Virus record (IMG/VR): IMGVR_UViG_3300032116_001510
Coordinates: 1 to 21,470 of that record
DNA length: 21,470 nucleotides
Origin: a virus
Reading direction: 5' to 3' (one strand)
The notes beneath the pieces are model-generated. The model did not search any database. It was not told where the DNA came from and saw nothing but the letters and a program-made list of their open reading frames with translations. Shown here piece by piece: positions 6,012 through 16,901 of the stretch (positions are counted from its first letter, which is position 1; the number at the start of each line of letters is the position of its first letter). The position numbers and the translations under genes were made by a program.

Positions 6012-7100
6012 TTATGGTCTTAGTAAGGGTGGTATGCCAGCCCTGCTTATCTTACTTCCTAATTTCTTAGCATTGTCTTGTATGCTATATGGGTTGATAT
6101 CTACTGTTAATCCAGTTTTGTATCTTGGATCGTTTTTTTGTTTAGGACTAGGTATATAACCACTAGCTCCTTCTTCTAATCCAACCTTACTTAATTCGTC
6201 ATAGTAATATGGATTTTCATTTAAATGATCCAGTGCTATTTCTTTTGCTAAAGATGGGTGATTTGTATGCTCCATCTCAACTTTTATTCCTTTTTTAAGT
6301 TGTTGGTATAAATCTTGCATTAATACGTGATGTTTACTTGCAAGTTTACGTAATGTTAGAGTTGGCTTATCCAATAAATTTTCTTCTTCTTCCGGCAAAC
6401 TTAATTTTTCACTTTTCAATTGATTTATTTTATCATATAATTTTGTTAAAATGCCTTTACTACGTAATGCTTTATATGCCAAATTTTCAGGACCAAACTC
6501 ACCATGCATGTCTAGTCCAGCTTGTCTATATTTTTTAACTGTTCGTAATAAATCGTTGATGCGTTTTTCATCTTCATTTTTAAGTGCCAGCTCTGCTAAA
6601 CGTGCTAGTTTATTAAATTTTAATCTCGTTGCAGCCTGATCTAAATTGGCTCTATGCTTTTTTGGAAGTCTTAACCATTCATCGTTTAGTACGCTATATT
6701 CACCCAAACTTATATGAGGTTGATTACTGTCCTGTACGTAAAGTTCAACATCATATCCACCAATCTGTATGTCATGATTTTCGTTATAAATTGTTTTTTT
6801 AGCGTCAAATAACTCACGGTATATAACGTCATTGTTCATTTTACTAATATCAACCAAAACATGTAAATCTATGTCACTATGTTTTGTGTATGAATAAGCG
6901 GCATTAGAACCAGATAATGTAACATCTGACACTTCTAAATGGGGGATACCTAAGTAATCTACAAAATCTTCTGCTATTAAAATTAGTTGCTTCCTTACTT
7001 CAGGACGCATTTTATCTCCCAAAAAAATCACTGGATTTAGTTGGTCGTGAAAAAATACTGCGTCATGCAGTTTAAAATTAGCTAGTTCCTTAAGGTTCAT
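6012..7100 (-). CDS. Pol-beta-superfamily nucleotidyltransferase with C-terminal DUF5661-like domain (362 aa)
   Basis: Residues 63-80 carry the nucleotidyltransferase signature: Gly64-Ser65, then Asp76-Ile-Asp78, with a third acidic position in YDVELYV (Asp117/Glu119). These bind the two metals that activate a nucleotide for transfer to an OH group. Residues ~150-250 are helical and charged. Residues ~255-308 (VEMEHTNHPSLAKEIALDHLNENPYYYDEL) resemble the DUF5661 domain found in phage proteins. ATG at 7100 lies only four bases after a late-type promoter and has no SD. An in-frame ATG at 7010 (residue 31) has a strong GGGAG seven bases ahead. I keep 7100 because residues 12-30 look like family sequence before the conserved PEVRKQL, but both starts may be used. 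Substrate unknown; it lies between the glycosyltransferase terminator and the fibre genes. Confidence 0.75.
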   Translation of the reverse strand: MNLKELANFKLHDAVFFHDQLNPVIFLGDKMRPEVRKQLILIAEDFVDYLGIPHLEVSDVTLSGSNAAYSYTKHSDIDLHVLVDISKMNNDVIYRELFDAKKTIYNENHDIQIGGYDVELYVQDSNQPHISLGEYSVLNDEWLRLPKKHRANLDQAATRLKFNKLARLAELALKNEDEKRINDLLRTVKKYRQAGLDMHGEFGPENLAYKALRSKGILTKLYDKINQLKSEKLSLPEEEENLLDKPTLTLRKLASKHHVLMQDLYQQLKKGIKVEMEHTNHPSLAKEIALDHLNENPYYYDELSKVGLEEGASGYIPSPKQKNDPRYKTGLTVDINPYSIQDNAKKLGSKISRAGIPPLLRP

Positions 7101-7104
7101 ACAG

Positions 7105-7112
7105 TATTTATC
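7105..7112 (-). promoter_or_regulatory. T4-late-type promoter, GATAAATA
   Basis: The minus-strand octamer matches TATAAATA at 7 of 8 positions and starts directly after the U-tract of the terminator at 7113-7148. It would drive the nucleotidyltransferase and the three fibre genes downstream. The expected start of transcription falls within or at the ATG at 7100, so the message would be leaderless or would begin translation at the internal ATG at 7010. Confidence 0.6.
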
Positions 7113-7148
7113 AAAAAAGGGCTATAACAGAGTTCTGCTATAGCCCTT
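7113..7148 (-). terminator. Intrinsic terminator after the glycosyltransferase gene
   Basis: Read on the minus strand, a 14-bp stem (one G-U pair) with an AACT tetraloop is followed by six T residues. The arms are 7135-7148 and 7117-7130. It lies 22 bases past the stop of the glycosyltransferase gene and directly before the next promoter. The GC-rich outer stem (GGGC/GCCC) and the T-run make it a textbook Rho-independent terminator. Confidence 0.9.
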
Positions 7149-7169
7149 GGTATTTAATGACAGTGTAAT

Positions 7170-8099
7170 TTATGCTGTCTTTTTACTTTTCTTTGTAGTT
7201 TTAGGTTGACCAACGTCTACTGGAGCTGCTTGCTGAGCAGCTTGTTGTGCTGCTTGTGCCTGTTGCTCTTGCACATACATAGGTCCAATTGTGTTCAACA
7301 AGTGCTGTTGATTTTCCATACAGAACACGTATGCACCGCTGTGACGTAACAGAACACGCTTATCTACGTAAACCTTACCACCTAAATCACGCCAGTTTTC
7401 ACAGAAAGTCCAGTCCTCACTATAGTAGCGATTCTGACGAACTGCTGTATCAAAGTAAGTTTTTAGATACTTATCATATTTTGGATCAAGTCCAATGTCG
7501 TTCTTGTACTGTTTAACTGCAGGATGAACATTTAATTTTTCAAATACATGCTTTTTCATCAACAAGAAACCAGTACCTGCTTTACTAACTTCCTGTAGTC
7601 CGTCTGGACCTTCTTCTGCACCCTCAAATCCATTGACTACCCACTTGATTGGCATAGTCTTCATGGGATAAAGTCCACCGATAACATCCTTGTCACGGTT
7701 CAACAATACTAGTAAATGCCATGGCTCCCAACCAATATCAGCATCAACAAAGAATAAGTGTGTTGATTCTGCTTGATCTAGGAATTTAGCAGTTAGTGTG
7801 TTACGTGCGCGGCTGATTAGGCTTTCATTGACCATTGTTTCTAATGTCCAATCGATTCCCAACTGTCGAGCAGTATTTGCCCATTTAATGAAACTCATAA
7901 ATGTGGACTCTGTTAACATACCACCATAGCATGGCATAGCTATGTGTACACGGGTAGTTTTTAGAAAGTCTACATTAACCTGTACTTGATTTTGAGCGGG
8001 CGCTGCAGGAGCGTCTTGTTCTTGAATTTCTTGAATTGCTTCTTGTACCTGCTCTACAGGTATAGTAGCTTCTTCTTGTGTTTGTTTTTTCTTAGCCAT
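7170..8099 (-). CDS. GT-A-fold glycosyltransferase-like protein (309 aa)
   Basis: The core from residue 51 (VHIAMPCYGG) to ~190 has the features of a GT-A glycosyltransferase: an N-terminal beta strand, a SLISRARN segment near residue 93 and a DxD-type metal/nucleotide-sugar site, FFVDADIGW (Asp119, Asp121). GGLYPMKT and GTGFLLMKK follow. Such enzymes move a sugar from a nucleotide-sugar donor to an acceptor; donor and acceptor here are unknown. The first ~45 residues are Gln/Glu/Ala-rich and the tail is Gln/Ala-rich then Lys-rich (KTTKKSKKTA); both look disordered. ATG at 8099 has an AGGAT site that lies in an inverted repeat, so translation may be controlled. It ends the late module that begins at 12007. 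Confidence 0.8.
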   Translation of the reverse strand: MAKKKQTQEEATIPVEQVQEAIQEIQEQDAPAAPAQNQVQVNVDFLKTTRVHIAMPCYGGMLTESTFMSFIKWANTARQLGIDWTLETMVNESLISRARNTLTAKFLDQAESTHLFFVDADIGWEPWHLLVLLNRDKDVIGGLYPMKTMPIKWVVNGFEGAEEGPDGLQEVSKAGTGFLLMKKHVFEKLNVHPAVKQYKNDIGLDPKYDKYLKTYFDTAVRQNRYYSEDWTFCENWRDLGGKVYVDKRVLLRHSGAYVFCMENQQHLLNTIGPMYVQEQQAQAAQQAAQQAAPVDVGQPKTTKKSKKTA

Positions 8100-8103
8100 T
8101 TTA

Positions 8104-8137
8104 TCCTCATGAAAATGTACTATTATTTACATGAGGA
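8104..8137 (-). promoter_or_regulatory. Hairpin masking the ribosome-binding site of the glycosyltransferase gene
   Basis: Perfect 8-bp inverted repeat TCCTCATG/CATGAGGA (arms 8130-8137 and 8104-8111 on the minus strand, 18-base loop). The 3' arm contains GAGGA, the SD of the gene at 8099, so RNA reading through from the upstream gene would hide it. The loop contains the late-type promoter motif at 8124-8131. Confidence 0.65.
8124..8131 (-). promoter_or_regulatory. Possible late-type promoter TGTAAATA inside the RBS hairpin
   Basis: It matches TATAAATA at 7 of 8 positions and differs from the GATAAATA used elsewhere in the window. A start about six bases further on would fall near 8118, beyond the 5' arm of the hairpin, giving an RNA with a free SD. 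Confidence 0.45.
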
Positions 8138-8150
8138 ATATCATTGTAAA

Positions 8151-9641
8151 TTATTTTTCGTCGAGATAATCTTCATTTATAGGTTCGTCAGGAAAAATCT
8201 GTTTGTAAAGATCCGATAATTCTTCATCACTAGCTAAGCTAAGATCACTAACATCATAATCCGTCGCTTTTGCTAGTCTATGGATCATTGCCTTGCGCAT
8301 ACCATAATCCATAGTATGACGGTTAGGTAAGTTAAATGGTTCTTCAGTTTCTCTTAAATCTGCATTTGAACCTTCAGCCCATCCTGTAAAATCATAAGCA
8401 TCCATTGATGGTAACATTACGCTTTGACCTTTTTTGTTAGTTAAAACAATATTATCGTATTCGTCATCCCAACCAATTTTCCAACCTAATGTTTGAAGTA
8501 TTGCAGATGTATGTTGCATAGCATTTTTAGGACCACTACCAAATCCTTTAGGGTCCATCACAGCATCTAGGCCCATACTATCTTCCTCTTGCCAAAACCA
8601 ATCATTTGCTAATTTTAAAACTTTTGGTGGTAGGTCTTTATAAGTTAATTGCCTTTGTTCAGGCCTTTTAAATTGTAAAATCTCTCCCTCTTTAACATTT
8701 TTATCCTTACTAGGACCATAAATTATTGCATTTGGATTTACATTATATTTGGTAATCAATAACTTAATAATTTTATCTAATTCGTTATTTGGAATAGCTT
8801 TGGCAATAGGATATGTGAATTCTTTTTTATTATGTTTACCTTTTATAAAAACGTCAATTAAGTCAGATCCAAAAATAACGTTTCCTTCTTTAACATCTTT
8901 AGTAGAAATTGTTTGTATAGATTCTTTTATCAATTTAAGTATTTTTACTTTTTGCTCTACATTGGCTTCTTTGAGCATAGGACGAACACGTTGTATAAAC
9001 TCTTTGATTTTTGCCTTTTTAGTTGCTGGTTTGAACTCTCCCATACGCTGACTTGCTTTCTGCATTAATGCTAACACTTCGTTATCGCTAAGTGCGTCTG
9101 GCATAGCATCTCGCCATACTTCAAACTTCTGTTCATCACTTGCGTTTGGATCTTTAAGAATTTCACGCATTGGAGTTGCCCTTGGTCCCTCTTCTGCTTG
9201 TGCTGCATCATCAACGTCTTGGCGTTTTATCACACTTAAATTTTCTAAACCTAATGTTTTGTAAACTACGTTGCCTGCTTTATCTTGTCCAACTAGATAC
9301 TGAAATGCCTTAACTTGATCTGCACCAACTACTAACACTGCATTCTTATAACCTAACTCTGCTAGTGTTCTCATTAATCTATTAATATCAGGTATCTCAT
9401 CGGTTGCACTTTGAAAGATATTTGCTTGTTTAGGAAAAACTTTCTTATAGATATATAATTTTTCTTCAGGATATAATGGATCGTCTGCACCTACTGTACG
9501 ACTAACAAAAAAGTATGGATCAGCACCCATATTCTGTGCTTGTATAATAACTGCTCTAGCCAATAGCATGTGACCTTTATGTCCCATACCACGACCCCAT
9601 CCCACTACTGCTGTATTACTTTTTCCTGTACGCTGTATCAT
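8151..9641 (-). CDS. HxGH-type nucleotidylyltransferase-like protein (496 aa)
   Basis: Residues 11-30 (AVVGWGRGMGHKGHMLLARA) carry the HxGH-type site (HKGH, 21-24) of the nicotinamide-nucleotide adenylyltransferase/cytidylyltransferase superfamily, which transfers NMP from NTP with release of pyrophosphate. VVGADQV (~104-110) and the ATPMRE segment (~155-160) match the later strand and the ISxTxxR-like phosphate-binding motif. After ~165 the protein continues for ~330 residues with no domain I can name. It is far longer than a typical NMNAT (~200 aa). ATG at 9641 is chosen because it overlaps the upstream stop as ATGA; an upstream in-frame TTG at 9659 would make a longer overlap. NAD, CDP-sugar and other substrates are all possible. 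It sits between the KxDG protein and the glycosyltransferase. Confidence 0.75.
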   Translation of the reverse strand: MIQRTGKSNTAVVGWGRGMGHKGHMLLARAVIIQAQNMGADPYFFVSRTVGADDPLYPEEKLYIYKKVFPKQANIFQSATDEIPDINRLMRTLAELGYKNAVLVVGADQVKAFQYLVGQDKAGNVVYKTLGLENLSVIKRQDVDDAAQAEEGPRATPMREILKDPNASDEQKFEVWRDAMPDALSDNEVLALMQKASQRMGEFKPATKKAKIKEFIQRVRPMLKEANVEQKVKILKLIKESIQTISTKDVKEGNVIFGSDLIDVFIKGKHNKKEFTYPIAKAIPNNELDKIIKLLITKYNVNPNAIIYGPSKDKNVKEGEILQFKRPEQRQLTYKDLPPKVLKLANDWFWQEEDSMGLDAVMDPKGFGSGPKNAMQHTSAILQTLGWKIGWDDEYDNIVLTNKKGQSVMLPSMDAYDFTGWAEGSNADLRETEEPFNLPNRHTMDYGMRKAMIHRLAKATDYDVSDLSLASDEELSDLYKQIFPDEPINEDYLDEK

Positions 9642-10765
9642 AATTTTCTCGGTTGCCAATTAAGTTGGTCTATTAGTTTTAAAAATTGTCCGGGCAACGC
9701 ATACTTGAAATTAATTTCAGGGTGTGCTTGTGCATAGCCCTCTGGTTTAGTTTGCATTATACCACCATGCAATCCTAAACTCAATGATTGTATTATTTTC
9801 ATCTTCTCATTAGTTAATGCTTCTACTGCTCCCAACGTTGCTTCATATCCTGCTTTGTCTGCTAACATTGTTTGTGCTTTTTTTGCACTTAAATTATTTT
9901 GTGCCCAATTTGGAAAATCTCTAACTAAGCCTGATGTTCTCAAATGCTGATTTAAATAATTATATAACTCACCACCTGGATTATTCATTCCTGGCTTTGG
10001 TGCTAAAAAGTTATCTATTTTTTGTGCGTTCGTGCTTATAAATTGTGCAAGTCTATCTAATCCGGTTGTGTCTACTCCCGGCATTGATTCGGCGTATGTA
10101 GTACCTTGAACAATTACCTCTTGTGTTGAAAGTTGGTCTGCATCTTCATATCTTGTTTCATCAGCACTTCCGATCGCATCATAATAACCAGTAGCAGCAA
10201 CCATCACTTTAGCATTTGCAATACGCTTACCTAATTCACTATCTGCAGGCACATGAAAAGTTGTTATATTAGGTTTAAAATCATAAGTATTCGTTTTTTG
10301 ATTAAACACCGGCGGTGCACCAGGATAAAAAAGTAATCCACCTTCTATAAAACCTCTTTGTGGGCTTATTTGTTCAAAATAAGGCCATAAGCTTGCAAAC
10401 TGTTTTGCAAACTGTGTGCGGCTAGCATCTGCTTGTCCACCTGTGCCTAATATAAAATTCATCACATCTTGTGGACTTTTAGTCAATGTAGATGCACCTG
10501 CTTTAGTTTGCATTGTACCTGATTTTAAATATTGCCATGCATTTTTGGGTATCATATAAAATGTACCGTTATCATCACGCCCCCAGTATACCACAGGCAT
10601 TCCGTCCCATTTTAATTCTATTGTTCCATAATTTTCAGCCATGTCACGCATACGTTCTACAGCATGTAATCCACCATGACTACCGTTGGCTATTACTAGA
10701 TCCTCAATATGTTGATATTTGCGACCTACCTGTCCTGCAGCTTCTAGTAATGCACTTATTCTCAT
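9638..10765 (-). CDS. Phage protein with KxDG motif, possible ligase-fold nucleotidyltransferase (375 aa)
   Basis: I recall proteins of this type in T4-like marine phages as a family of unknown function (possibly DUF6267; not checked). Residues 49-60 (IELKWDGMPVVY) contain Lys52-Trp-Asp54-Gly55, which has the form of motif I (KxDG) of DNA/RNA ligases and mRNA-capping enzymes, where Lys takes the AMP or GMP. RGFIEGGLLFYPG around Glu141 could be motif III, and KVMVAATGYYD (~186-196) could sit near motif IV. Motif V is not obvious, and the last 170 residues are mostly helical without a match. ATG at 10765 overlaps the upstream TGA (ATGA) and is preferred over a TTG at 10795. The enzyme assignment is inference; the gene is certain. 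It lies between two other nucleotidyltransferase-type genes. Confidence 0.7.
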   Translation of the reverse strand: MRISALLEAAGQVGRKYQHIEDLVIANGSHGGLHAVERMRDMAENYGTIELKWDGMPVVYWGRDDNGTFYMIPKNAWQYLKSGTMQTKAGASTLTKSPQDVMNFILGTGGQADASRTQFAKQFASLWPYFEQISPQRGFIEGGLLFYPGAPPVFNQKTNTYDFKPNITTFHVPADSELGKRIANAKVMVAATGYYDAIGSADETRYEDADQLSTQEVIVQGTTYAESMPGVDTTGLDRLAQFISTNAQKIDNFLAPKPGMNNPGGELYNYLNQHLRTSGLVRDFPNWAQNNLSAKKAQTMLADKAGYEATLGAVEALTNEKMKIIQSLSLGLHGGIMQTKPEGYAQAHPEINFKYALPGQFLKLIDQLNWQPRKL

Positions 10766-11502
10766 TTTAACATGTCCATTGTGCGACGGAACCAACTACG
10801 AATATCCTCACTTAATTCTATGTTTGGTGCCCATTTATCTTTGATAGCTTTATATTTTTCTGGATTACTTCTTAATGCTGCTAGAATAGAATGCACACTA
10901 CCCATATCGTCAGCACTAGCATTAGGTCCAATTATTATTTTTGCTATTTGATCTTTGTTGCTTGTAATTAATTCTTTCGTCTGACGATCAACAAGTCCTT
11001 TGTATGGACTCATCATCAAACTAGGATGTTCAGGAAGTGAACTCATATTTGTTAAATCAGCCCATATACCATGTAACGTGCCACCTTTCATGCTAGCATC
11101 TTTACTATAATCATGCGTATGTAATGGTACGACATCTCTTGCATTTTCTACTGCCATAATGTCTACTTGTGTGACATCATTACCTTCACCTGTTGGAACC
11201 CCTACATGCACACTAACACCTGATCTTGCAGCAAACATTCCGTTTGATTGGAAATATTCTTCCAATGCTTTACGACTGAGTTTAAGTTCTTTTGATGGAA
11301 AAACAGCCATTAATTCTGCAGCATCTATTAAAACATCCATATCGCTACTTACATCTTTTTTACCTGCACTTCCAATAGGATAGACATTAATTCCCTTAGG
11401 CATTAATTTTTGTAAATTACTAACGACGGTAGATACGTTTTTTCTTGTTACAGGCTTCGCATCAGGAACAACATTTCCACCTTCTGAAATTAAAGTTGAC
11501 AT
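10762..11502 (-). CDS. Pol-beta-superfamily nucleotidyltransferase (246 aa)
   Basis: The motif IGSAGKKDVSSDMDVLID (residues 43-60) gives Gly44-Ser45 and the metal ligands Asp54 and Asp56. TQVDIM supplies the third carboxylate at Asp114. This is the minimal pol-beta nucleotidyltransferase catalytic set. The C-terminal half contains a conserved-looking HTHDYS...MKGGTLHGIWADL segment and a helical end (DIRSWFRRTMDMLK). Start ATG 11502 overlaps the previous stop as TAATG, and its own stop overlaps the next start as ATGA, so translation is coupled through the module. Acceptor (RNA, protein, sugar or nucleotide) cannot be told. It is not closely similar by eye to the second enzyme of this fold at 6012-7100. 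Confidence 0.8.
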   Translation of the reverse strand: MSTLISEGGNVVPDAKPVTRKNVSTVVSNLQKLMPKGINVYPIGSAGKKDVSSDMDVLIDAAELMAVFPSKELKLSRKALEEYFQSNGMFAARSGVSVHVGVPTGEGNDVTQVDIMAVENARDVVPLHTHDYSKDASMKGGTLHGIWADLTNMSSLPEHPSLMMSPYKGLVDRQTKELITSNKDQIAKIIIGPNASADDMGSVHSILAALRSNPEKYKAIKDKWAPNIELSEDIRSWFRRTMDMLK

Positions 11503-11840
11503 TAGTAGCTTACCTTTATTGACTGAATGACACCTGTAGTAAAGTTAGTAATATTAACTCGCAACCAAACAAAATTACCAGATAAATTATAATATCCCAA
11601 TTCAGTTGTAGAACTAGGACTTAACGTATAAACATTAAACCAATCTGTATTTGTAGGGTTCTCTGACAAACTTGCCTGCACAACAACTGTAGCAGTTACG
11701 TTGGTAAAGTTCCAAGTAAGTGTTTGTAAATCGCTTTTTCCTAAATAATAAGAGGCAGCGGTCTGTTTGGTGCCTGTAATATTTGGACCTGATCCAAAGG
11801 GAGTTTGAGATAAAAGAATAAGTGTAGTAGCCTGAGACAT
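11502..11840 (-). CDS. Beta-rich small protein, probably virion-associated (112 aa)
   Basis: A 112-residue protein rich in Thr, Ser, Asn and aromatic residues with alternating hydrophobics (TATVVVQASL, NFVWLRVNITNFTTGVIQSIKVSY), which predicts a beta sandwich. FNVYTLSPSSTTE and GYYNLSGNF.WLRV resemble small discoidin-like or carbohydrate-binding-like domains of phage structural proteins. That is a composition-based guess. It has no charged catalytic cluster, signal peptide or membrane segment. It overlaps the genes on both sides by one base (TAATG), so it is tightly coupled to the 55-aa gene and the nucleotidyltransferase. Confidence 0.7.
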   Translation of the reverse strand: MSQATTLILLSQTPFGSGPNITGTKQTAASYYLGKSDLQTLTWNFTNVTATVVVQASLSENPTNTDWFNVYTLSPSSTTELGYYNLSGNFVWLRVNITNFTTGVIQSIKVSY

Positions 11841-12007
11841 TATGCTTGCACCACTTCTACTACTACTGAATCACCCACTAATTCTTGGGCTACTTGTTCA
11901 AGAGCGGACTGAACTTCAGCTACCGCAATTCCAGCTGTGCCAGAATCATTATCTTTGACAATTTTACTGAATTTTATAACTAGTACATCTTCTACGATTT
12001 TAGCCAT
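11840..12007 (-). CDS. Small acidic protein at the head of the late module (55 aa)
   Basis: ATG at 12007 opens a 55-codon frame ending in TAA at 11840-11842, which overlaps the next ATG as TAATG. A GGAG ribosome site lies eight bases before the ATG, and a late-type promoter precedes it. The protein starts MAKIVEDVLVIKFSKIVKDN and continues with an amphipathic helix-like EVQSALEQVAQELVG and a beta-type end VVVEVVQA. It looks like a small alpha/beta fold with no catalytic motif. Its SD is in the 3' arm of an inverted repeat, so its translation, and by coupling that of the genes after it, may depend on which promoter is used. Function unknown. Confidence 0.75.
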   Translation of the reverse strand: MAKIVEDVLVIKFSKIVKDNDSGTAGIAVAEVQSALEQVAQELVGDSVVVEVVQA

Positions 12008-12009
12008 GG

Positions 12010-12035
12010 TAAATACTCCATTAATAGAGTATTTA
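12010..12035 (-). promoter_or_regulatory. Hairpin masking the ribosome-binding site of the 55-aa gene
   Basis: Perfect 9-bp inverted repeat TAAATACTC/GAGTATTTA with an 8-base loop (minus-strand arms 12027-12035 and 12010-12018). Three of the four bases of the GGAG ribosome site (12016-12019) pair in the stem. The late promoter at 12030-12037 overlaps the 5' arm, and its predicted start near 12024 lies in the loop. Confidence 0.75.
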
Positions 12036-12037
12036 TC
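12030..12037 (-). promoter_or_regulatory. T4-late-type promoter, GATAAATA
   Basis: It matches TATAAATA at 7 of 8 positions in the 37-base gap before the 55-aa gene. It is the likely promoter of the whole module 12007 to 7170, which then ends at the terminator 7113-7148. Confidence 0.65.
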
Positions 12038-12044
12038 AAAATAG

Positions 12045-12710
12045 CTATCGCTGTTCTACTTTATAGGTTTTGCCCAAATATTCACCAAAATTCAATGCAA
12101 GTACTGACAAAAAGGCTTCGCTGTCATAGTCGATGAAAAAACAAGCGTCTAAATAACGTAGGCGCCATGTCGCTGGTCCTGTTGTTTTTAGCCATTTTTT
12201 CAAACTTCCAGTGGGGTATGCTGATTTACCATACTGTTGTAAAAAGTTCTCAAGTTCTATATGAAACCCGTCTGGAACTGTTTTGCTTCTAAAATATGTC
12301 CTAAATTTATGTTTTGGGTTATTACGCAACAGAACGCCCACGTCACCCTCTACTTTTATCTCTGAATAATGAACTGAACTAGGCGCTAAAGACTCTAATG
12401 ATTTACATATTTCTAAATCATTGCTATAAACACTTACGCAATCGTAATCAATTCTGACTGTTGCACGTTCTTTAGGTATAGTATTACGCCAATTCATTAA
12501 ATTGAGTAAAAATACTTTGTTTACAGAAGTATAATTATCTTCATATACCCTTCCAAAATTATAAGTTTTACGTAGGGCAATCGCTTTATCTAATTCTTTT
12601 TCACTTTTTGTATAGCGTATTAGACAGATATTAGGATAATATAAATAGGCTCTATATTTGTATTTTCCGTAATATAATTTATTTTTGGCAATAACCTTAA
12701 TATTATTCAA
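12045..12710 (-). CDS. Unknown basic protein (221 aa)
   Basis: I do not recognise this protein. It begins MNNIKVIAKNKLYYGKYKYR and is rich in Lys, Arg and Tyr in its first 80 residues. An alpha/beta middle follows (ATVRIDYDCVSVYSND.EICKSL), then KHKFRTYFRSKTVP and GSLKKWLKTTGPATWRLRYLDACFFIDYDSE. The basic, aromatic composition could suit nucleic-acid binding, but no named motif is seen. The frame has no early ATG; the start is taken as TTG at 12710, which overlaps the stop of the clpA-like gene by eight bases, with GACGGGG upstream. The next in-frame ATG comes only after ~70 residues. It would be co-transcribed with dnaJ and clpA. Confidence 0.65.
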   Translation of the reverse strand: MNNIKVIAKNKLYYGKYKYRAYLYYPNICLIRYTKSEKELDKAIALRKTYNFGRVYEDNYTSVNKVFLLNLMNWRNTIPKERATVRIDYDCVSVYSNDLEICKSLESLAPSSVHYSEIKVEGDVGVLLRNNPKHKFRTYFRSKTVPDGFHIELENFLQQYGKSAYPTGSLKKWLKTTGPATWRLRYLDACFFIDYDSEAFLSVLALNFGEYLGKTYKVEQR

Positions 12711-14976
12711 CTGTAATTACCCCGTCATATCCAACAAATGCAGTTACTTTTGGTGTAACAGTAAATTCAATTTCTTCACCATTTAATATTGCGAATACGT
12801 TAGAATTTTTTACATTGTCAAACACAATTTTCTTTGACAATGGAACTCTTATCAACTCATCAATTTTACGTGACAATGGTCTTGCACCCATTTTACTATC
12901 ATATCCTACCTCTGCCAAATAGTCAACAACAGGTTCACTTAAGTTAAGAGTAATATCATGTGCTGTCTTAAGGGATTTTTTAAGTTCATCAACAAACTTA
13001 ACCACAATCTTTTTAATAGCAAGCTTGTCAAGTTTATTAAATTTACAGATCAAATCTAATCTGTTTCTAAATTCAGGTTTGAAAAATTCTTTCATTGCAC
13101 GTTCATCTTCACCTGTTTTTTCCTGTGAACCAAACCCAATTGCATTCTTTTCACTATCACTTGCACCTAAATTACTTGTCATAATAATAATACAGTTTTT
13201 AGCGTTAACCTCTTTACTATTGCTTCCAGTAACACGACCTTCATCAAGTAGCTGTAAGAATATATCAAATACTTCTGGGTGTGCTTTTTCGACTTCATCA
13301 AACAACAAAATTGAATATGGATTTTTTGATAAATCATTGATCAATTTACCACCACCTAAATTACCTTCTCCATATCCTACATAACCAGGAGGTGCTCCAA
13401 TAAGTTTTGCTACACTATGTTTCTCTCCGTACTCACTCATATCATATTTGAGCAGTGGCATGTCTAAATTTTTGCTCAGTAGTTTTGCGAGTTCAGTTTT
13501 ACCTGTACCTGTAGGTCCTAAAAACAAGAAACTACCAACTGGTTTTGTTTCATTATTGATACCTGCAAAGCTTACATAAATTCTTTCAAGAACTTTATTA
13601 ACTGCATCGTCTTGTCCATAAAGTTTGTCTTTAACATTTTGATCTAGGTTCTTCACTCTGTCACTGAAATCATTACTAAGTTTATCTGCAGGAACGCCTG
13701 TAAATCGTTCAACTTGTTCATAGATTAACTCTTTAGTGATTTCCGCTTCTTTGTTTTCTAATACACGCTGTTTAGCACAGGCTGCGTCAAGTAAATCGAT
13801 TGACTTGTCAGGATTTTTTCTATCATGTATATAACGTGAGGAACAATCTACACTTGCTTCAATTGCCTCTTCAGTAATTTTTACATTATGAAAATCATTC
13901 AGTCTTTGACTTAATCCACGTAGAATACGAATAGTGCTATCTGTACTTGGTTCGTCAATACCAACACGATAGAATCTACGCATTAATGCACGATCCTTTT
14001 CAAAACTTTCGTAGTACTCTTCCCAAGTAGTACTTGCAATAATCTTCAAAGTGCCTTTAGTAATTGCAGGCTTAATCATACTTGCAAAGTCGATTGAACC
14101 GTTATTAGTATTACCACTTCCCTTCATTGTGTGTGCTTCATCAATAAACAGAATAGCTTTTTTCTTAGTATTAAGTGCATCAATGATGTTCTTAATTTTT
14201 TCTTCAAAGTCACCACGATACTTTGATCCTGCCAACAACATACCGACTTCAAGGCTATACAACTCATGATCTTTTAAGAATTCAGGCACCGCATCTTCTA
14301 TAATCATAGTAGCAAGACCTTCTGCAATCGCAGTTTTACCTACACCAGGATCACCTACCATTAATACATTTGATTTAAATCGTTTTGCTAATACATTTAT
14401 AATATCGTTAAGTTCAGTGCTACGTCCAATTAATGGTTCTAATTTACCTTCGTGAGCCATTTTAGTAAGATTGATTGTATACTCGTCGAGAATTTCATTG
14501 GCTTGAGTATCTGTAAGATTGCCTGAATATTCTGCGCCCTTATAAGTTTTTTGCCAATGAGGTACAAATTCATTCTTAGTCATTCCATACTTTAACAAAA
14601 AGTAATGTGCATGACTATTGTTTTCACTCATAATGCTCAAATACAGGTCAACTGTCGTAACATTTTTACGTCCAGTAAATAATACCTGAGTAACACTACG
14701 ATTAATCACACGCTCAAGACTGTTTGTTTTTTTAGGATGCACATCTTGACCTTGATCTACGTTTAGGACTATTGATTTAAGACTGTCTAGGTATGCTGTC
14801 AACTCTTTAGTTAAATTTTCAACGTCTATGCCAAATTGTTCTGAACATTTTTTGAATGGAGTGTGTTTCATTAAGGCTAGTAGCAAGTGTTCCACAGTAC
14901 AGTATTCATGGCAACGATCCTTTGCCATAATAATAGCCTGCTCAATAATAGATTCAATTTCGACTGAACTGTTCAA
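12703..14976 (-). CDS. clpA: ClpA-like AAA+ unfoldase (757 aa)
   Basis: A full-length Hsp100 protein, 757 aa against 758 for E. coli ClpA. The N-domain (1-~140) has the CTVEHLLLALM motif. D1 has Walker A GDPGVGKT (208-215), pore loop KYRGDFEE (252-259), Walker B LFIDEAH (276-282) and arginines MRRF (332-335). D2 has Walker A GPTGTGKT (487-494), pore loop GYVGYGEGN (531-539), Walker B ILLFDEVEK (556-564), EFRNRL and sensor-2 GARPLSR. No ClpB-type middle domain is present. NAIGFGSQ (611-618) supplies an IGF tripeptide where ClpA docks ClpP, so it may feed substrates to host ClpP. The start is TTG at 14976 with AAGGA seven bases ahead; an ATG start further in would cut the N-domain. It follows dnaJ by one base. 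Substrates unknown. Confidence 0.92.
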   Translation of the reverse strand: MNSSVEIESIIEQAIIMAKDRCHEYCTVEHLLLALMKHTPFKKCSEQFGIDVENLTKELTAYLDSLKSIVLNVDQGQDVHPKKTNSLERVINRSVTQVLFTGRKNVTTVDLYLSIMSENNSHAHYFLLKYGMTKNEFVPHWQKTYKGAEYSGNLTDTQANEILDEYTINLTKMAHEGKLEPLIGRSTELNDIINVLAKRFKSNVLMVGDPGVGKTAIAEGLATMIIEDAVPEFLKDHELYSLEVGMLLAGSKYRGDFEEKIKNIIDALNTKKKAILFIDEAHTMKGSGNTNNGSIDFASMIKPAITKGTLKIIASTTWEEYYESFEKDRALMRRFYRVGIDEPSTDSTIRILRGLSQRLNDFHNVKITEEAIEASVDCSSRYIHDRKNPDKSIDLLDAACAKQRVLENKEAEITKELIYEQVERFTGVPADKLSNDFSDRVKNLDQNVKDKLYGQDDAVNKVLERIYVSFAGINNETKPVGSFLFLGPTGTGKTELAKLLSKNLDMPLLKYDMSEYGEKHSVAKLIGAPPGYVGYGEGNLGGGKLINDLSKNPYSILLFDEVEKAHPEVFDIFLQLLDEGRVTGSNSKEVNAKNCIIIMTSNLGASDSEKNAIGFGSQEKTGEDERAMKEFFKPEFRNRLDLICKFNKLDKLAIKKIVVKFVDELKKSLKTAHDITLNLSEPVVDYLAEVGYDSKMGARPLSRKIDELIRVPLSKKIVFDNVKNSNVFAILNGEEIEFTVTPKVTAFVGYDGVITVE

Positions 14977-16364: not shown

Positions 16365-16901
16365 TTATAATCCTGCCATTGCTTTAAAATTTTTTAATTC
16401 GTTGTCTTGTTCTGTGTAAATTTTGTGAGGTTCTATACCTGATAGTTCACGCATTTCATTTAATTCAGTTTCTTTTGCTTCTCTATATTGATGAGGAGAC
16501 AATAGTATATTTGATTTTAATTGATCTATGTCAGCTTCAATTTCAATATCGTTAACTTCAATTGTCCAATCAGACATTTCAAGATTAGTTAGTGTTTCTA
16601 AATCTTCTAGTATTTCAATTATACGCTCTGGTACTTTTGATCTACGCTCCATTTCAACAAAAACTACGTGTTTACCTCTTCTAACTTCACCCTTACTTAC
16701 TTGTGCGTCTATAACAAAATCATAACCCTTTTCAAACCATGCTGCTAAATCTTGACTTGCTTCCCTACCTTTTACAGTAAAGGCTAGAGTAACCGTTTCG
16801 TCATCACTTCCAGTCTTAGCTTCATACTCATCAATTGAAAGTACAGGGATAATTTGTCTTACAAAATCTTTGTAATCTACTCCTTCATTTAATTGGTTCA
16901 T
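16365..16901 (-). CDS. Unknown acidic protein (178 aa)
   Basis: I do not recognise this protein. It has an alpha/beta opening (DYKDFVRQIIPVLSIDEYEAKTG, TVTLAFTVKGREASQDLAAWFEKGYDFVIDAQ, KHVVFVEMERRSKVPERI), then a strongly acidic helical region (IEILEDLETLTNLEMSDW and onward) and a C-terminal helix. The many Glu/Asp residues and lack of Cys or membrane segments fit a soluble cytoplasmic or virion protein. ATG at 16901 overlaps the stop of the 209-aa gene as ATGA, and AGGAG lies within the end of that gene. It precedes the putative holin by nine bases. These three genes look like one late operon. Confidence 0.65.
   Translation of the reverse strand: MNQLNEGVDYKDFVRQIIPVLSIDEYEAKTGSDDETVTLAFTVKGREASQDLAAWFEKGYDFVIDAQVSKGEVRRGKHVVFVEMERRSKVPERIIEILEDLETLTNLEMSDWTIEVNDIEIEADIDQLKSNILLSPHQYREAKETELNEMRELSGIEPHKIYTEQDNELKNFKAMAGL

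What the first reader, a model, noticed from the sequence alone, without database searches (positions are those of the whole stretch)
6012..12007. Cluster of five transferases of four folds next to the fibre genes
In six kilobases there are two pol-beta-type nucleotidyltransferases (GS...DxD), a KxDG ligase-like protein, an HxGH nucleotidylyltransferase and a GT-A glycosyltransferase. Four are in one coupled late unit with two small, virion-like proteins. Late timing and position beside the fibres suggest modification of virion parts, of a surface sugar or of nucleic acid. I know the individual types from T4-like marine phages but no characterised pathway that uses them together. This is the best candidate here for an undescribed system.
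Basis: partly seen in the sequence, partly recalled or inferred. Interest (0 to 1): 0.75.

Follow-up and report, generated by a model that had tools for sequence, protein, structure and literature searches.

The report
Late phage cassette of nucleotidyl-transfer enzymes
A phage makes, late in infection, a tightly linked set of three nucleotide-transferring enzymes (a polymerase-beta-like, a ligase-like and an NAD/CoA-synthase-like protein) that are fused to one another in relatives and are probably packed into the virus head and injected, which gives two 'hypothetical' genes widespread in ocean phages a testable role.

Summary
The five enzyme ORFs are real and their active-site motifs are conserved, but they are not one five-part system. 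NT1–LIG–CYT is the invariant core: NT1 adjoins or is fused to LIG in 31/31 relatives, and CYT follows LIG in 25/25 near and 67/68 distant loci. NT1–LIG and LIG–CYT fusions occur (the latter also in cyanophage S-PM2). GT and NT2 accompany the core in only 6 of 11 testable loci, all of the window's own clade; NT2 sits behind a terminator with its own late promoter, in front of the fibre genes. The predicted NT1 fold matches palm plus thumb of family X DNA polymerases (Z 12.2); the CYT core matches PPAT/NMNAT (Z 12.2); LIG is Pfam DUF6267 with ligase-type motifs, fold unproven. LIG, and mostly NT1, begin with leaders resembling T4 capsid-targeting propeptides; the window's CYT lacks one. Late-promoter-like sites precede the operon in most relatives. 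Published cyanophage virion proteomes contain CYT homologues and one NT2 homologue. Best reading: late-made enzymes packed in the head and ejected with the DNA, acting on nucleic-acid ends or nucleotide cofactors, not on fibres. Substrate unknown. A new variant of T4-type ejected head enzymes.

The parts
12029..12037 (-). late-promoter-like GATAAATAC before the first unit
   Evidence: conserved upstream of p55 in 11/13 relatives; coordinates
11840..12007 (-). p55, small conserved protein, first gene of the unit
   Evidence: no family match
11502..11840 (-). p112, small conserved protein, virion-like by look only
   Evidence: phrog_13657, unknown function
10762..11502 (-). NT1, family-X-polymerase-like nucleotidyltransferase; GS 11356-11373, DMD 11335-11343, QVDI 11158-11169
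   Evidence: alignment; AlphaFold and fold match
11482..11502 (-). NT1 leader MSTLISE|GG, CTS-like
   Evidence: most relatives end in [LI]xE before GG
9638..10765 (-). LIG, DUF6267, ligase-like; KWDG 10601-10612, EGGLLF 10328-10345, KPEGY 9734-9748, FLKLID 9668-9685
   Evidence: Pfam; alignments; motifs
10742..10765 (-). LIG leader MRISALLE|A, CTS-like
   Evidence: 85/88 LIG proteins have such a leader against 18% of other genes
8151..9641 (-). CYT, HxGH nucleotidylyltransferase core (residues 1-203) plus variable modules and DYLDEK tail; GHKGH 9570-9584, ATPMR 9165-9179
   Evidence: alignment; AlphaFold and fold match
8922..8978 (-). candidate prohead-protease sites MLKE|A and LIKE|S just after the CYT core
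   Evidence: similar sites in L008, L018; CYT tails hold 67 [LI]xE[AGS] sites against 26 expected
7170..8099 (-). GT, GT-A-type glycosyltransferase, FFVDADI 7734-7754; clade-specific neighbour
   Evidence: phrog_1574; Anp1 below cut-off; motif; co-occurrence
7118..7147 (-). hairpin followed by T-run, end of the first unit
7104..7112 (-). late-promoter-like GATAAATAC before NT2
   Evidence: ATAAATA in 9/9 relatives; coordinates
6012..7100 (-). NT2, minimal nucleotidyltransferase (GSNA 6900-6911, DIDL 6864-6875, VELY 6738-6749) plus DUF5661 and C-terminal GYIPS module; second unit, clade-specific neighbour
   Evidence: Pfam; homologue is a virion protein of S-CREM2

Best explanation
The core is a three-enzyme cassette, NT1-LIG-CYT, made from a late promoter and most likely packed into the phage head, at least NT1 and LIG by T4-type capsid-targeting leaders that the prohead protease would remove after L/I-x-E. 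The enzymes would be ejected with the DNA and act in the first minutes of the next infection. NT1 adds nucleotides as a stripped-down family-X polymerase or terminal transferase. LIG forms a covalent nucleotidyl-lysine and seals or activates ends. CYT makes or recycles the adenylylated cofactor as an NMNAT/PPAT-like enzyme. Together they would mend or modify nucleic-acid ends, possibly against host nucleases or defence. Shown here: gene order, fusions, conserved active-site motifs, predicted folds of NT1 and the CYT core, late-promoter-like sites, leaders. Reported by others: homologues of CYT and of NT2 in purified virions. Inferred: packaging of NT1 and LIG, cleavage, ejection, substrates and joint action on ends. 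GT and NT2 are clade-specific neighbours; NT2 may be a further packaged enzyme.
For: Invariant order NT1-LIG-CYT, 31/31 and 25/25 and 67/68 LIG-CYT in distant loci. Natural fusions NT1-LIG and LIG-CYT, also in isolate S-PM2. NT1 fold: pol beta Z 12.2 over 174 residues, palm and thumb. CYT core: PPAT/NMNAT Z 11-12. LIG: KWDG and PEG conserved at about 20% identity. Leaders: LIG 85/88, CYT 55/86, other genes 18%; T4-like start pattern LIG 38/90, CYT 47/84, others 31/532. Late-promoter-like site upstream of the operon in 45/55 distant loci, 12.6 expected, and in four of the isolates examined. Virion proteomes: S-SM1 T4-GC190, S-CREM2 CYT and NT2 homologue, S-SZBM1 CYT, an NMNAT-like protein in S-SCSM1. 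Virion-detected enzymes of S-CREM2 share the leader type.
Against: The window's CYT has no leader, and a stricter leader pattern was not enriched in CYT (2/84). LIG of S-SZBM1 has no leader and was not among 30 detected virion proteins; LIG and CYT of P-HM1 and S-CAM1 also lack leaders. L/I-x-E is short and found by chance, for example at the start of ClpA. The S-CREM2 authors note that such proteins may be contaminants. The LIG fold is unproven and profile tests were uninformative. The PolX match of NT1 is by predicted fold only, sequence profiles give nothing. Distant loci are not all independent.
Confidence: 0.45

Rival explanations
1. Cofactor rescue: CYT is an NMNAT (or PPAT) delivered or made to restore NAD+ (or CoA) when host defence or infection depletes it; LIG and NT1 act on the same nucleotide cofactors or on NAD-linked substrates rather than on DNA ends.
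For: CYT core fold matches PPAT, NMNAT and NadD; NMNAT-like proteins are repeatedly found in cyanophage virions, and authors propose NAD+ supply.
Against: Does not explain fusion and linkage with a ligase-like protein and a polymerase-X-like protein; substrate specificity untested.
Confidence: 0.17
2. RNA repair: NT1 and LIG restore host or phage tRNAs cut by defence nucleases, as T4 PNKP and RNA ligase 1 do; CYT supplies the cofactor.
For: LIG motifs PEGYV ... VKLVDRxEF resemble those of RNA ligase 2 by eye; the only named ligase near LIG in the viral fold search is a phage RNA ligase, weakly.
Against: NT1 resembles DNA polymerase beta and lambda rather than CCA-adding enzymes among the rows shown; no kinase/phosphatase partner was seen.
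Confidence: 0.13
3. Late intracellular enzymes that are not packaged: they repair or finish the phage DNA before packaging, or are made late for another intracellular purpose.
For: In cyanophages the pair lies among replication genes and some LIG and CYT lack leaders.
Against: CYT homologues are detected in virions of several phages; leaders are enriched.
Confidence: 0.15
4. One reading: the five enzymes modify fibres, capsid or a surface sugar.
For: GT is in the same unit, and NT2 lies in front of the fibre genes in the window's clade.
Against: The three-gene core exists without GT and NT2 and away from fibres in cyanophages and Melnitz.
Confidence: 0.08

Closest known systems
T4 internal head proteins and Alt (capsid-targeting sequence, gp21 processing, ejection)
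   Same: Short N-terminal leader ending in L/I-x-E before A/G/S/D, late expression, enzymes; homologues of CYT found in virions.
   Different: Different enzymes; in the window CYT has no leader; packaging and cleavage not shown.
Cyanophage T4-GC71 (DUF6267) and T4-GC190 (cytidyltransferase)
   Same: LIG and CYT are homologues in the same order.
   Different: About 21-30% identity to the window's proteins; in cyanophages the gene upstream is not NT1-like and the pair lies in the replication region.
Family X DNA polymerases (pol beta, pol lambda)
   Same: Predicted palm plus thumb fold, GS and three catalytic aspartates.
   Different: No room for the 8-kDa lyase domain; no sequence-profile match; natural fusion to a ligase-like protein.
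PPAT (CoaD), NMNAT and NadD
   Same: Fold of the CYT core, HxGH and TxxR motifs.
   Different: About 10-18% identity; substrate unknown; fused to LIG in relatives.
Polyvalent proteins of phages (Iyer et al. 2017, PMC5512222)
   Same: Multi-domain proteins with swapped catalytic modules, proposed to be delivered on infection; CYT tails carry HD, GNAT, HNH or PAP2 modules in relatives.
   Different: No metallopeptidase seen; candidate processing sites are prohead-protease-like.

Membership tests
Family X DNA polymerase (NT1) | palm with GS and catalytic DxD...D | tested here: met
   conserved in 18/18 complete relatives, alignment
Family X DNA polymerase (NT1) | thumb domain after the palm | tested here: met
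   predicted fold aligned over pol beta 136-335, Z 12.2, 3.5 A
Family X DNA polymerase (NT1) | sequence match to family profiles | tested here: not met
   Pfam scan at E up to 10 and PDB profile search give none
Family X DNA polymerase (NT1) | template-directed DNA synthesis | not testable with these tools
   needs enzyme assay; hence not filed as a member
Covalent nucleotidyltransferase superfamily, ligases and capping enzymes (LIG) | motif I KxDG and later motifs III-V in order | tested here: met
   KWDG and PEG conserved, [EQ]G[GD]L and KL[IV]D in order by inspection
Covalent nucleotidyltransferase superfamily, ligases and capping enzymes (LIG) | adenylation-domain fold | tested here: inconclusive
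   fold lists filled by NT1; weak phage RNA ligase match
Covalent nucleotidyltransferase superfamily, ligases and capping enzymes (LIG) | profile similarity to known ligases | tested here: inconclusive
   no signal, but Rnl2 against gp30 gives none either
HxGH nucleotidylyltransferase (CYT) | HxGH and TxxR motifs and the Rossmann-like fold | tested here: met
NMNAT (CYT) | adenylylates NMN or NaMN | not testable with these tools
   fold matches tie between PPAT, NMNAT and NadD
T4-type capsid-targeted internal head protein | N-terminal leader ending in L/I-x-E, window NT1 and LIG | tested here: met
   MSTLISE|G and MRISALLE|A
T4-type capsid-targeted internal head protein | N-terminal leader ending in L/I-x-E, window CYT | tested here: not met
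   starts MIQRTGK; present in L019, L034, L038 and many distant homologues
T4-type capsid-targeted internal head protein | late expression | tested here: inconclusive
   conserved late-promoter-like sites; no transcript data
T4-type capsid-targeted internal head protein | present and cleaved in the virion | not testable with these tools
   published only for homologues of CYT and NT2, presence without cleavage data

The most novel reading that the evidence does not exclude
A virus-head-delivered end-joining kit: a minimal family-X polymerase fused or coupled to a ligase (a short-patch or NHEJ-like pair) with an NMNAT-like enzyme that recycles the NMN released by an NAD+-dependent ligase, injected to repair or circularise the incoming genome or to undo host nuclease damage.
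Probability: 0.12. Interest if true: 0.85.

Novelty: new variant of a known kind. Interest (0 to 1): 0.55.

Why it matters
DUF6267 occurs in 469 phage records and, together with the cytidylyltransferase, in all eight marine or freshwater T4-like genomes checked here (one with only a partial DUF6267 match) but not in T4; neither protein has a known role. Fusions in both directions tie them, and the newly recognised polymerase-X-like NT1, to one task. Leaders and late-promoter-like sites suggest injected enzymes, which makes the role testable by virion proteomics and simple enzyme assays.

Tried and rejected
Five genes as one pathway: rejected, GT and NT2 absent from the five testable sister-clade loci. 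NT1 as the homologue of the gene upstream of LIG in cyanophages (T4-GC533): the NT1 profile found nothing in six phage genomes where LIG and CYT are found; a nuclease-like look of the upstream gene in Melnitz is only an impression, with no Pfam match. LIG against T4 Rnl2 and gp30 by hhalign: no signal, and Rnl2 against gp30 gave none either, so uninformative. A stricter leader pattern: LIG 27/90 against 59/532, but CYT only 2/84. No ligase chain among the rows shown for the fusion model in PDB; NT1 filled the list. PADLOC: only a weak CD-NTase-like hit to the NT1-LIG fusion (E 9e-4), not followed because the fold match includes the pol-beta thumb. ATAAATA counts alone are not above chance in the window. 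DUF6267 is not mentioned in the paper library.

Full report
What is there. The window is a 21.5-kb viral contig with T4-like neighbours. On the minus strand lie p55, p112, NT1, LIG, CYT and GT, then NT2 and the fibre genes. ATGA overlaps place the likely starts of LIG at 10765 and of CYT at 9641.

Transcription. GATAAATAC stands directly before p55 and before NT2 in nearly all relatives, and a hairpin with a T-run ends the first unit between GT and NT2. In distant loci a late-promoter-like site lies just upstream of LIG or about 1-2 kb upstream, where the preceding gene starts, in 45 of 55, against 12.6 expected in shuffled DNA. The same word lies upstream of the operon or of CYT in S-CREM2, Melnitz, S-SZBM1 and S-CRM01, although there the genes sit among replication genes; P-HM1, S-CAM1 and DSL-LC02 lack the exact word.

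Co-occurrence. Scans of viral contigs gave 23 and 24 close relatives and 80 distant ones. NT1 precedes or is fused to LIG in 31/31; CYT follows in 25/25 near and 67/68 distant loci. Fusions join NT1 to LIG (L036-L042) and LIG to CYT (L021, L022, and S-PM2d138 in an isolate). GT and NT2 are present in 6 of 11 loci with enough flank, all in the window's clade, and in none of the other five. In S-CRM01 LIG, a kinase, CYT and NT2 lie within 7 kb. LIG homologues are in 469 phage records. Eight of nine genomes searched have LIG and CYT matches (S-CREM2 only a partial LIG match); T4 has neither.

Folds. AlphaFold of the natural NT1-LIG fusion (pLDDT 79) shows NT1 as palm plus thumb of family X polymerases: pol beta Z 12.2 over 174 residues, pol lambda Z 12.1. 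Sequence profiles do not see this. The CYT core (residues 1-203, pLDDT mostly above 90) matches PPAT, NMNAT and NadD. LIG is DUF6267 with conserved KWDG and PEG; its fold could not be tied to ligases apart from a weak match to a phage RNA ligase, and profile tests were uninformative.

Leaders. LIG N-termini vary in sequence but end in L/I-x-E before A, D or similar (MRISALLE|A, MKIKEFITE|A, MRAIEFLTE|A, MINFSSFLTE|D). T4 internal proteins read MKTYQEFIAE|A and MKTFKEF..., and gp21 cuts after L/I-x-E (PMC9026906). Counts: LIG 85/88, CYT 55/86, other genes 18%. A T4-like start pattern is enriched in both (LIG 38/90, CYT 47/84, others 31/532), while a stricter pattern supported LIG only. These patterns were chosen after seeing the sequences, so the P values are not clean tests. 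In S-CREM2, whose virion proteome is published (PMC10665884), the detected SAM hydrolase, Cas9-like protein, kinase and CYT bear such leaders; with the broad pattern 6/17 detected and 3/39 undetected genes have one (p 0.017). S-SZBM1 CYT, also found in virions (PMC9146016), starts MRFRQFIIE|A, while its LIG has no leader and was not detected. T4-GC190 was found in S-SM1 virions (PMC3037559). The window's CYT lacks a leader but has L/I-x-E sites just after its core, and CYT tails in general hold 67 such sites against 26 expected.

Reading. Shown here: a conserved, partly fused three-enzyme cassette behind late-promoter-like sites, with intact active-site motifs. Supported but not shown: packaging in the head. 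Inferred: processing, ejection and action on nucleic-acid ends or cofactors. Membership in family X polymerases or in ligases is not claimed; the claim is that NT1 and LIG probably work like them.

Noticed in passing
window 8151-9000; L022, L024, L097, L125: CYT ORFs carry different modules between core and tail in relatives: RelA/SpoT-type HD_4, GNAT-like, HNH_3, PAP2, DUF5824. In the window's clade most end in a conserved DYLDEK/DYIDEK tail.
   Followed up: partly
L045, L046 (S-CREM2 gp6, gp12-gp15, gp154): Virion-detected SAM hydrolase, Cas9-like protein, kinase and CYT share an M-K-x-F-x-x-F-L-x-E type leader, a possible way to predict ejected enzymes in cyanophages.
   Followed up: partly
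L249 (S-CRM01 g126-g131): Six consecutive genes, including the kinase and CYT, begin with CTS-like leaders; with LIG g132 and NT2 g125 they look like a cargo cluster.
   Followed up: no
window 6012-6300: NT2 ends in a DUF5661 domain and a SGYIPS...KNDPR...LTVD...RAGIPP module; the GYIPS module recurs at the NT2 C-terminus in relatives while the part before it differs in length.
   Followed up: no
window 16365-16901: 178-aa protein with leader MNQLNE|G; its family has such a leader in 88% of 8 members.
   Followed up: no
L045 gp160 (12343-13236): S-CREM2 virion protein gp160 carries TGFTGAAAPEGPVAGYDPLM near its N-terminus, resembling the segment after the propeptide of its own major capsid protein.
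   Followed up: no
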